Of a stretch of DNA of 38,509 nt, positions 1 to 2,769 are shown piece after piece. The DNA comes from an uncultured Bacteroidota bacterium. GTDB taxonomy: Bacteria > Bacteroidota > Bacteroidia > Bacteroidales > F082. The stretch is from positions 1-38,509 of the forward strand of contig CAJXKB010000020.1 in assembly GCA_913055825.1 (NCBI GenBank), given 5' to 3'. The position numbers were made by a program, and so were the translations under genes. Every line of letters starts with the position of its first letter. Position 1 is the stretch's first letter. The notes under the pieces were generated by a model, which worked only from the letters and a program-made list of their open reading frames with translations, ran no database searches and had not been told where the DNA came from.

Positions 1-257
1 TGGCATTTTATCCCAAAATGATTATTTGCTTTACGTGCTATCCGGCTCCGGCCGCTCCCCGATTCAAGAATTCCCTGCGCCAATGTGATTGAAGCCGGGA
101 TTTTGTATTTTTTCATATCCTTGATGGCAATATCTTTATACTTTCGGATATAGGCTTCTGTGGCTTCACGGCTACCTTGGGCATAAACTTCCTGAGAAAT
201 TATTCCCATCAGAATAACCGGTAACAAAAAGCGTATAAAAGTGTAAGATTTTCCCAT
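1..257 (-). CDS. Secreted glucosaminidase (GH73/FlgJ-like), 3' part missing
   Basis: The first 85 or so residues of an exported peptidoglycan hydrolase; the left window edge removes the rest. The start is the ATG at 257. A hydrophobic signal peptide covers residues 1-26 with a likely cut after VYA. The mature protein then shows the opening of the GH73 endo-beta-N-acetylglucosaminidase fold: helix KYKDIAIKDMKKY, then IPASITLAQGILESGSGRS with the expected catalytic Glu at residue 65, then NNHFGIKC. In Bacteroidota such proteins often carry C-terminal LysM domains, but that part lies outside the window. The role inferred is cleavage of the glycan strand in the periplasm or outside the cell. The GldN-like lipoprotein gene lies 92 bp upstream on the same strand. 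Confidence 0.85.
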   Translation of the reverse strand, partial: MGKSYTFIRFLLPVILMGIISQEVYAQGSREATEAYIRKYKDIAIKDMKKYKIPASITLAQGILESGSGRSRIARKANNHFGIKC

Positions 258-349: not shown

Positions 350-898
350 TCACGGTTCATCCTTTAGTGAATTCAAAAATTCCTTATCGGGAAATATCCA
401 GAAAAGCGGCTGCCAGCGAAGTTTTCCTCCCTGATCAAAACGTCTGGCCACAGGAGCAATACCAACCACTTTCTTCTCAAAAGCAAAATTTTTCCGGTCA
501 ACCCGCCATTCTTCCATAAACCTCAACCTTTGAATGTCGGAAGCCTGAATCCGCTCGATTATTAACGTATCCCTTAAATCATATGGCGGTTTGGCACGCC
601 TGAGCTTGCGCACTATTGTGTCCGTCAGGATATTAGCCACCGCCTGTCTGCTAAGTGGATGATAATAATAGTCATAGGCAGGATATCTGCCACTTTTAGC
701 CCCCCGTAGCAAAAGTCTTACAAGGTGCTCACGCTGCTCCCCCGCCAAATTTTGAATCCACCAGTCGTAATTAGGATCAGGACTTTTGATGTTTACGTCA
801 TACTGTATCCGTTTGGTTATGATTTCTTCCCTGTTTTGCCGGCAAGCACTGAACAACAGTACCAAAAACAAAAGTCCGATTGTAAAACCCCATTTCAT
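350..898 (-). CDS. GldN-like lipoprotein
   Basis: A lipoprotein of about 182 residues. The ATG at 898 is chosen because it gives a compact signal peptide ending in the lipobox LFSAC (Cys19); an ATG at 910 and a TTG at 916 are alternatives. Residues in the last third (EEWRVDR..., KVVGIAPVARRFD, QPLFWIFPD) match the pattern I know from GldN/PorN, the periplasmic ring component of the type IX secretion and gliding machinery (EDWFFD..., RIIGIAPV..., LFWIYFPE). It differs from GldN in being shorter, in ending soon after the FWIFPD segment, and in carrying a lipid anchor. No gldK, gldL or gldM is adjacent. Its function is not known; a T9SS accessory or GldN paralogue is an inference from motif likeness only. 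Confidence 0.6.
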   Translation of the reverse strand: MKWGFTIGLLFLVLLFSACRQNREEIITKRIQYDVNIKSPDPNYDWWIQNLAGEQREHLVRLLLRGAKSGRYPAYDYYYHPLSRQAVANILTDTIVRKLRRAKPPYDLRDTLIIERIQASDIQRLRFMEEWRVDRKNFAFEKKVVGIAPVARRFDQGGKLRWQPLFWIFPDKEFLNSLKDEP

Positions 899-950: not shown

Positions 951-966
951 TTAAATGAACTTTACC

Positions 967-2769
967 ATGAAAAAACTCATCCTACTACTGTTCATCACCT
1001 TTGGGTTTTGGCAACTAATTACAGCCCAGATTATCCCCAACAACAGAATGGTCAACTGGAAACAAAGTCTGTCGTCATTTTCTTTTTCCGAACATTCCAA
1101 ATCATTAAATATCTTAAACTTCGGGGCAGTTGGCGATGGCCATACCGATAATTCAACAGTGTTAAAGAACGCCATAACCTTTTTAAACGGACAGTCAGGC
1201 AGAATTATTTTCCCGGCAGGAAATTATCTTTTCAAAGCCCCGGTAACTTTACCCGATAGCGTAATGCTCCAGGGCGAAGGGGCAACGAAAAGTAAGTTAT
1301 TGTTTGATTTGGGAAGAACAAATGAGGATGCCATCCGGCTCACCGGAAAAGAAGAAAACTACTTTGTAAGCCTTAAAAGCGGATTTGAAAAAGGCAGCAG
1401 CCGGATTCTTTGTGATTCGGCCTTTTATTTTCATCCGGGTGATTGGGTGGAAATTCGCGAAAAAAACGGGAAATGGAACACGGTCCCGGTCGATTGGGCA
1501 CGATGGTCGGTGGGACAAATCGGACGGCTTGTAAAAATCTCCGGCGACACACTTTTTTTGGAACACCCTCTTCGAATAGATTATTCAGTTAATTTAAGGC
1601 CTCAGATACAACGGATTTTTCCACTTCAAAATGCCGGGCTTTCCTGTTTGAAAATTAAACGAATGGCTGAGCCCGATACGGGAGGAGGTTTTAATATCCA
1701 TGTCAGCCTGGCGGTTAATTGCCTGATTTCAGGTATCGAAAGCGACAGCAGCTCGGGCAGCCATGTTTACATCAACCGAAGTAGCCAAATCAGGGTACAG
1801 GGAAGTTATTTCCATTATGCTTTTGCTTATGACGGCAACAGCACACACGGCTACGGTGTAACGTTGGCGCATCACAGTGGCGAATGTCTGATTACCAACA
1901 ATATCTTCGATCACCTGCGACATGCCATGATGGTAAAAACCGGTGCCAACGGTAATGTATTTTCCTACAATTATTCACGCAACCCGGTCAGGACCGAGCA
2001 AATTTCAGACCTTTCGGGAGACATTTCACTTCATGGCCATTATGCTTACGCGAATTTGTTTGAGGGAAATATTGTTCAGAATATCATTATCGACCACTAT
2101 TGGGGACCTTCCGGCTCATGGAATACGTTTTTCAGAAACCGGGCTGAACTGTGGGGAATAATCATGACAGACAGCGACACCACAGAAACTGATTTTCAAA
2201 ACTTTGTGGGTAACGAAACCACCGATTCCGATTTCTTTCACGGATTGTTTGCCCTTACGGGAGCCCATCATTTTAGCTATGGAAATCATATCCTTCAGCA
2301 AATTATCCCTACCGGAACCGACAGCCTGCCTGACAAAAGCTATTACCTGGACAAGCCTCCCGGCTTCTGGCGCGATGGATTAAAATGGCCGCCGGTGGGG
2401 TTACCCGACTCATTGGGCAAAGGCACTATTCCGGCACAAATCCGTTACCAAAACGGAACCAACTTTACAACTTGTAGCGATTCGGTGTATGTATCAGTAA
2501 ATGAAAAGGTATTAATCAAACCTGAGTTTCAACTTATTCCTAACCCTGTTGTTTCTCAATTTCAAATCAGGTTTCGACAACCTGTAAGCGGCAACCTTAG
2601 CTATCAACTTTACGACCTGCGGGGACGAAAAGTGTGGAATGGAAACAGAATCTTAAAAAATCAAAAAAGCATATTTCTCCGGCCTGTAAATATCAGGGAA
2701 AAGGAAATTTATCTTCTCCTTTTTTCCTTATCAGGATATCATTTTGCAAGAAAAATAGCTTTTAAATAA
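967..2769 (+). CDS. Secreted pectate-lyase-fold protein with T9SS sorting domain
   Basis: A protein of about 600 residues exported by Sec and then the type IX secretion system. The start at 967 (MKKLILLLF) gives a standard signal peptide ending near ITAQ; an in-frame ATG at 955 adds four residues. The segment LNFGAVGDGHTDNSTVLKNA with the downstream GGR-like IIFPAGNYLF stretch is the opening of the Pectate_lyase_3 right-handed beta-helix, and later Asn/His-rich repeats (ITNNIF, HAMMVKTGANGNVFSYN) look like helix coils. The last 75 residues (LIPNPV, YDLRGRKVW, terminal KIAFK) form a type A T9SS C-terminal domain, which directs the protein to the surface or medium. The substrate cannot be read from sequence; a polysaccharide is likely. 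The next gene follows after only 7 bp. Confidence 0.85.
   Translation: MKKLILLLFITFGFWQLITAQIIPNNRMVNWKQSLSSFSFSEHSKSLNILNFGAVGDGHTDNSTVLKNAITFLNGQSGRIIFPAGNYLFKAPVTLPDSVMLQGEGATKSKLLFDLGRTNEDAIRLTGKEENYFVSLKSGFEKGSSRILCDSAFYFHPGDWVEIREKNGKWNTVPVDWARWSVGQIGRLVKISGDTLFLEHPLRIDYSVNLRPQIQRIFPLQNAGLSCLKIKRMAEPDTGGGFNIHVSLAVNCLISGIESDSSSGSHVYINRSSQIRVQGSYFHYAFAYDGNSTHGYGVTLAHHSGECLITNNIFDHLRHAMMVKTGANGNVFSYNYSRNPVRTEQISDLSGDISLHGHYAYANLFEGNIVQNIIIDHYWGPSGSWNTFFRNRAELWGIIMTDSDTTETDFQNFVGNETTDSDFFHGLFALTGAHHFSYGNHILQQIIPTGTDSLPDKSYYLDKPPGFWRDGLKWPPVGLPDSLGKGTIPAQIRYQNGTNFTTCSDSVYVSVNEKVLIKPEFQLIPNPVVSQFQIRFRQPVSGNLSYQLYDLRGRKVWNGNRILKNQKSIFLRPVNIREKEIYLLLFSLSGYHFARKIAFK

What the first reader, a model, noticed from the sequence alone, without database searches (positions are those of the whole stretch)
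350..898. A stand-alone lipoprotein with GldN-like sequence
The segments EEWRVDR, VVGIAPVARRFD and PLFWIFPD follow the order and spacing I know from GldN/PorN. This protein is shorter, has a lipobox and lies away from any gldKLM genes, next to a glucosaminidase and divergent from a T9SS cargo gene. It could be an uncharacterised T9SS accessory or a degenerate GldN paralogue.
Basis: partly seen in the sequence, partly recalled or inferred. Interest (0 to 1): 0.55.

Follow-up and report, generated by a model that had tools for sequence, protein, structure and literature searches.

The report
Lipid-anchored relative of secretion-ring protein GldN
A small predicted lipoprotein has kept only the core of GldN, a ring protein of the type IX secretion machine of Bacteroidota, and belongs to an old, conserved sister family whose job is still unknown.

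Summary
Window 350-898 (-) encodes a 182-aa predicted lipoprotein that matches Pfam GldN (46.1 bits, cut-off 23). Its model matches solved PorN best (Z 8.7; next unrelated row 4.1). The same genome has a canonical GldN in a PorP-GldK-GldL-GldM-GldN run.

It is not a degenerate copy. Orthologues are in 17 of 23 family relatives, 103 relatives were confirmed in named genomes, the lipobox Cys is kept in 79 of 80 rows, and dN/dS is 0.04-0.06 in the informative pairs. Canonical GldN forms its own clade (100/100).

The PorK-docking helices and the PorM- and PorN-contact segment known from the PorKN structure are absent, and the two PorK-facing turns lack the canonical residues. A lipobox and a new invariant block (residues 28-57) stand instead. 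So it is a GldN core with its own lipid anchor, not a GldN-type ring subunit. A T9SS accessory role is the best guess but is inferred: all 50 carrier genomes tested have GldN or SprA.

Tandem-core and larger forms exist. Searches found no description in print.

The parts
350..898 (-). gene of the GldN-core lipoprotein, 182 aa
842..856 (-). lipobox LFSAC; predicted lipidated Cys19 is codon 842-844
   Evidence: sequence; Cys in 20 of 20 rows and 79 of 80 rows
728..817 (-). clade-specific block, residues 28-57 (T-x-[KR]-IQYDV ... DWWIQN ... RE), with other residues in canonical GldN
395..514 (-). shared GldN core motifs, residues 129-168 (EEW ... GIAP ... PLFWI)
3..257 (-). downstream glucosaminidase (cut by the contig end); genus-level neighbour, not shown to share the function
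   Evidence: PF01832 57 bits; two full-length orthologues carry two LysM stretches each; same-strand neighbour in 10 of 11 genus genomes that have the gene
955..2769 (+). divergent beta-helix protein with a T9SS-tail-like C-terminus; frequent but not obligate neighbour

Best explanation
This is a lipoprotein, most likely of the outer membrane and facing the periplasm, built from the GldN/PorN core alone. Canonical GldN is a soluble subunit that hangs on the lipoprotein GldK through its N- and C-terminal helices and two turns of its core. This protein lacks those helices and carries its own lipid anchor, so it should not need GldK to reach the membrane. It also lacks the C-terminal segment that touches the motor protein GldM and the neighbouring GldN. 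A new invariant stretch (residues 28-57, first strand and following helix) most likely binds a different partner. I think it works as an accessory of the type IX secretion system at the outer membrane, for example an adaptor near the ring or translocon, and not as a standard ring subunit. Shown by computation: homology, predicted fold, lipobox, absence of docking segments, separation from the canonical clade, purifying selection. Inferred: lipidation, outer-membrane location, T9SS role, binding surface. Partner: unknown.
For: Homology. Model: pLDDT 85, pTM 0.72; VIA Z 8.7, rmsd 3.1, 118 aligned to 7pvh, next unrelated row 4.1. Control: the own canonical GldN gives Z 17.4 with 181 aligned. Missing elements: published PorK contacts are N-helix 25-37, turns N44-W47 and F156-D162, C-helix P249-L270 and loop F271-Q283; PorM crosslink A241; PorN-PorN E235/N236 (passages and sections 11 and 13 of PMC12421860). 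The match ends at PorN 195 in 9ots numbering. PorN W47 is W61 of the own canonical GldN (W in 96% of canonical rows), I in half of the short rows; canonical K173, R175, S176 of the second turn (96-100%) are also not kept. Own family: canonical clade 100/100; dN/dS 0.041-0.057 in the 7 of 14 closest pairs with dS of 0.29 or more. T9SS nesting: of 50 carrier genomes 47 have a canonical GldN hit (one of them partial at a contig end, one with an in-frame stop) and the other 3 have SprA. None of 7 order genomes lacking both GldN and SprA hits has the gene.
Against: T9SS is nearly universal in the order (GldN in 138 of 148 genomes), so the nesting is weak evidence; 7 negatives are few and partly related. 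The gene is missing from 6 of 23 family relatives that keep GldN and was not seen in two more family genomes, G119 and G597 (17 candidates scored), so it is dispensable. Its widest neighbours are housekeeping genes (M16 peptidase, O-methyltransferase), not T9SS genes. Fold match: Foldseek TM-scores are only 0.41-0.51 with large rmsd, Z to 9ots is 6.8, and the tool warns that Z near 8 can be a common arrangement; the sequence profiles carry the homology. The second-turn argument is weaker than the rest, because P. gingivalis PorN itself has T159 and N160 where the own canonical GldN has Q and R. Relatives fused to WG repeats or long regions may mean a general module. No interaction data.
Confidence: 0.5

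Rival explanations
1. A T9SS-independent periplasmic or outer-membrane lipoprotein: the GldN core was recruited long ago as a binding module for another envelope task.
For: The known ring and motor contact segments are absent. The widest neighbours are housekeeping genes. The core recurs in tandem and in fusions, one with WG repeats.
Against: All 50 carrier genomes tested have a canonical GldN (47) or SprA (3) hit; not seen in 7 genomes without GldN and SprA.
Confidence: 0.3
2. A GldO-like redundant ring subunit that replaces some GldN copies in the GldKN ring.
For: Same core fold and shared core residues; GldO is a partly redundant GldN paralogue in F. johnsoniae (passage of PMC9127263).
Against: No N-helix, C-helix or C-terminal segment, and canonical residues of both PorK-facing turns not kept; lipobox; not beside gldN.
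Confidence: 0.1
3. Partner of a dedicated peptidoglycan hydrolase (the adjacent glucosaminidase with LysM), together opening the cell wall for the T9SS, like FlgJ in flagella (analogy recalled).
For: Same-strand neighbour in 10 of 11 genus genomes that have the gene, with gaps of -22 to 110 bp in the 8 loci (crude gene starts).
Against: 8 of 79 loci in the wider set; elsewhere the next gene is an M16 peptidase (25 of 79) or a cupin (15 of 79).
Confidence: 0.06
4. Dedicated helper for secretion of the divergent beta-helix cargo.
For: Immediate divergent neighbour in 32 of 79 loci.
Against: Not obligate: G015 has the cargo without the gene; G007, G009, G010, G012, G019, G021, G022 and G028 have the gene without a cargo hit.
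Confidence: 0.03
5. A degenerate GldN copy without function.
For: Lacks the C-terminal part of GldN.
Against: 20 of 20 A1 rows open, 25 invariant columns, outside the canonical clade, dN/dS near 0.05 in the informative pairs.
Confidence: 0.01

Closest known systems
GldN/PorN (PF19841, TIGR03523), ring subunit of the type IX secretion system
   Same: Core fold and the shared core residues P105, Y106, D110, R126, E129, W131, P149, P164, F166, W167; Pfam hit over cut-off.
   Different: No N-helix, C-helix, PorM-contact or PorN-PorN segment; lipobox; canonical residues of both PorK-facing turns not kept; separate locus and outside the canonical clade.
GldO of Flavobacterium johnsoniae
   Same: A GldN paralogue.
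   Different: GldO lies next to gldN and is partly redundant with it (passage of PMC9127263). That GldO is full-length and not a lipoprotein is recalled, not tested.
PorK/GldK and GldJ, FGE-fold lipoproteins of T9SS and gliding
   Same: Lipoproteins linked to T9SS.
   Different: Different fold (FGE-like in PMC12421860); here only candidate partners. Strong GldJ hits occur in genomes with and without the gene.

Membership tests
PF19841 GldN (as a domain family) | whole-protein score over the gathering cut-off | tested here: met
   46.1 bits against 23
TIGR03523 GldN/PorN ring subunit (equivalog) | score over the curated cut-off of 85.9 bits | tested here: not met
   31.7 bits; the own canonical GldN scores 275.9
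GldN/PorN ring subunit | core fold of PorN | tested here: met
   Foldseek ranks 1-5; Z 8.7, 118 aligned, next unrelated row 4.1
GldN/PorN ring subunit | N- and C-terminal helices that dock on PorK | tested here: not met
   the match covers PorN 43-195 (9ots numbering) only
GldN/PorN ring subunit | PorK-facing turns N44-W47 and F156-D162 | tested here: inconclusive
   turns present in position, canonical residues not kept; PorN itself differs from the canonical rows in the second turn
GldN/PorN ring subunit | segment holding the PorM contact (A241) and PorN-PorN contact (E235, N236) | tested here: not met
   the protein ends before it
GldN/PorN ring subunit | encoded in the gldKLMN run | tested here: not met
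   own canonical gldN is there, this gene is on another contig
GldN/PorN ring subunit | found in the purified ring with GldK | not testable with these tools
   needs protein purification
bacterial lipoprotein | signal peptide with lipobox Cys, conserved | tested here: met
   Cys in 79 of 80 rows; the exception (L151) is cut by a contig end
bacterial lipoprotein | lipidation and outer-membrane location | not testable with these tools
   needs labelling and fractionation

The most novel reading that the evidence does not exclude
Bacteroidales carry a second, undescribed GldN family: lipid-anchored GldN cores, single, tandem or fused to other repeats. It split from the ring subunit before the order diversified and forms a separate outer-membrane element of the T9SS (or a new envelope device) that needs neither GldK docking nor the known motor contact.
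Probability: 0.4. Interest if true: 0.72.

Novelty: new variant of a known kind. Interest (0 to 1): 0.52.

Why it matters
In the papers I saw, GldN/PorN is treated as a ring subunit. An old, conserved lipoprotein family that keeps the GldN core but drops the known ring and motor segments suggests that the core has a life of its own in Bacteroidales. It also means that some proteins caught by PF19841 should not be counted as T9SS ring subunits. If it proves to be a T9SS part, it is an accessory that the cultured model organisms may not show.

Tried and rejected
Rejected: degenerate copy. Cargo-specific helper: co-occurrence is not strict. Glucosaminidase partner as the general explanation: the neighbour is confined to the genus. 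GldJ as the explanation of presence and absence: hits below E 1e-100 in 36 of 40 relatives (15 of 40 over the cut-off), with and without the gene. Promoter and terminator scan: 5 promoter-like sites against 1.7 expected, 1 terminator-like against 0.8; a Bacteroidetes-type promoter pattern recalled from memory gave one site far from the gene.

Phylum search: none of 391 other genomes gave a short form, but only the 8 best candidates per genome were scored, so distant forms may be missed. VIA rows below PorN (acetyltransferases and others, Z about 4) were taken as background. Literature: the terms gave no paper that, by its listing, describes such a family (one search is mostly noise; only open-licence PMC papers are held; most listed papers were not opened). 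Three order-level hits (G579, G121, G096) have a stop inside the matched stretch; their open frames still span most of the profile (L192, L197, L202) and were not looked at further.

Selections and drops: one search anchored 79 of 81 loci (window plus 80); L105 and L149 lost their anchor in my crude gene picking. One search took 50 of the 80 loci, and several of those genomes are the same as genomes under other handles. In the tree 27 short loci were tried and 26 rows entered (L141 gave no row, probably a duplicate of L193); L224 and L233-L235 were left out, canonical rows were hand-picked; short single forms are not one clade there (3 changes) and 13 tandem and 2 divergent rows sit nearer the canonical clade (89/89), with long branches and an unsettled bootstrap. 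In one search, 28 of 39 candidate canonical loci passed a motif filter (E[DE]W[YF] plus YDR), so the canonical share at E129 and W131 is partly by construction. In one search the strict lipobox pattern matched 71 of 80; 8 more were counted by eye.

Full report
CHECK. The minus-strand ORF at 350-898 encodes 182 aa with a lipobox (LFSAC) and the three segments quoted. Pfam GldN matches at 46.1 bits (cut-off 23), the stricter equivalog TIGR03523 at 31.7 (cut-off 85.9). A single-sequence search of solved structures gives PorN/GldN at E about 0.01 over residues 117-168; the family profile gives E 5e-7 over 56-172. The family profile against an 11-sequence canonical GldN profile gives 99.8%, E 4.7e-28.

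OWN GENOME. The window is contig C20 of a 3.1-Mb assembly of 97% completeness. On C7 lies a run of PorP, GldK, GldL, GldM and GldN, each over its NCBIfam cut-off; that GldN scores 275.9. The short protein is an extra, separate paralogue.

DISTRIBUTION. Orthologues (E below 1e-50) are in 10 of 11 genus and 7 of 12 other family relatives; two more (E about 1e-34) are among 16 other order genomes. Two further family genomes, G119 and G597, gave no short form. A scan of named genomes confirmed 103 relatives, 80 listed; the listed titles read Bacteroidota, Bacteroidetes, Bacteroidia, Bacteroidales, Marinilabiliales, Lentimicrobiaceae, Lentimicrobium or (as deposited) Chlorobiota MAGs. In 197 order genomes further single, tandem and divergent relatives appear. 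In 391 other phylum genomes only hits with open frames of 288-419 aa were seen, with 8 candidates per genome scored.

A CONSTRAINED FAMILY. The 20-row alignment has 25 invariant columns, Cys19 among them. Cys is kept in 79 of 80 rows of the larger set. dN/dS is 0.041-0.057 in the 7 of the 14 closest pairs with dS of 0.29 or more, and 0.11-0.45 in the other 7, where dS is small. In an 81-row tree canonical GldN (22 rows, including rows from outside the order) is one side of a branch with 100/100 support; all short, tandem and divergent rows lie outside it. The short single forms are not resolved as one clade, some tandem rows sit nearer the canonical clade (89/89), and the bootstrap had not settled.

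STRUCTURE. AlphaFold2 on the 20-row alignment gave pLDDT 85.1, pTM 0.72. Foldseek puts PorN chains at ranks 1-5, with modest TM-scores of 0.41-0.51. VIA-align gives Z 8.7 to 7pvh and 9mzu, 6.8 to 9ots and 6.1 to 9myj, against 4.1 for the best unrelated row; model 22-172 aligns with PorN 43-195 in 9ots numbering. As a control, the canonical GldN of the same genome gives Z 17.4 over 181 residues (model pLDDT 67).

WHAT IS MISSING. I read passages and sections 11 and 13 of PMC12421860. There PorN is held to PorK by the N-helix 25-37, the turns N44-W47 and F156-D162, the C-helix P249-L270 and the loop F271-Q283; A241 crosslinks to PorM; E235 and N236 sit in the PorN-PorN contact. The paper's numbers equal the 9ots chain index minus 21 (checked by counting W47, W154 and A241 in the alignments). 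The short protein stops before all the C-terminal elements and has a lipobox and short linker in place of the N-helix. In canonical rows W61 (= PorN W47; 96%) and K173, R175, S176 of the second turn (96-100%) are fixed; in the short rows these columns have other residues (I 50%, P 44%, T 41%, L 76%). P. gingivalis PorN itself departs from the canonical rows in the second turn, so that point is the weaker one. In exchange, residues 28-57 hold a block fixed in 91-100% of short rows and different in canonical ones: T28, Q32, Y33, D34, V35, I37, D45, W46, W47, Q49, N50, G53, R56, E57. The simplest reading is an exchange of partner: lipid instead of GldK, and a new surface instead of the old ones. 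That is inference.

NEIGHBOURS. In the genus the gene is followed on the same strand by a glucosaminidase (with LysM in the two full-length copies scanned) in 10 of 11 genomes that have it. Over 79 loci the next same-strand gene is an M16 peptidase in 25, a cupin in 15 and the glucosaminidase in 8; immediately upstream and divergent is the beta-helix cargo in 32 and a D-serine dehydratase-like gene in 21. Cargo and gene do not strictly co-occur. The neighbourhood shows descent at an old locus better than it shows function.

T9SS LINK. Of 50 carrier genomes 47 have a canonical GldN hit (G656 only a partial one at a contig end, G610 with an in-frame stop); the other three, G611, G620 and G652, have SprA. 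Ten of 148 order genomes lack any GldN hit; seven of these also lack SprA, and none of the ten has the short form. Because T9SS is in most of the order, this is supportive but weak.

A LARGER SET. Proteins with two GldN cores occur in several families (L218, L219, L222 and both L223 proteins have two Pfam stretches each). L218 and L230 lie directly before an M16 peptidase gene, as the single form often does, so the core may have been doubled at the same locus. L223 holds two adjacent proteins of 910 and 939 aa, each with two cores and a long further region. L224 holds a 1005-aa protein with GldN-like stretches found by my profile only (best E 2e-10) and nine WG stretches by Pfam.

VERDICT. A GldN core with its own lipid anchor: member of the GldN domain family, but not of the ring-subunit family by the features tested. 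Its role is most likely accessory to T9SS, unproven. No description of such a family was found.

Noticed in passing
L218:4069-5094, L219:4159-5199, L222:4510-5508, L225:3520-4545, L229:3518-5475, L231:4356-5447, L232:1048-2031: Proteins with two GldN cores in tandem (about 315-365 aa), several with a lipobox-like start; L218 and L230 lie before an M16 peptidase gene as the single-core gene often does.
   Followed up: partly
L223:5740-11307: Two adjacent proteins of 910 and 939 aa, each with two GldN cores followed by a long region without another Pfam hit over cut-off.
   Followed up: no
L224:5828-8842: 1005-aa protein with GldN-like stretches (own profile only) followed by nine WG repeats.
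   Followed up: no
window 955-2769 and its orthologues: Beta-helix (RHGA-epimerase-like) protein whose orthologues end in T9SS-like tails; the window copy scores below the tail models' cut-offs. G002 (one in-frame TGA) and G006 (fragment with TAG) have damaged copies.
   Followed up: partly
G103, G107, G133: Order genomes with a SprA_N hit but no GldN hit at the thresholds used: diverged, missing or unassembled GldN.
   Followed up: no
G039:C362, G058:C70, G079:C125, G091:C501: Two full-length gldN copies close together on one contig, an arrangement like gldN-gldO, in genomes of this order.
   Followed up: no
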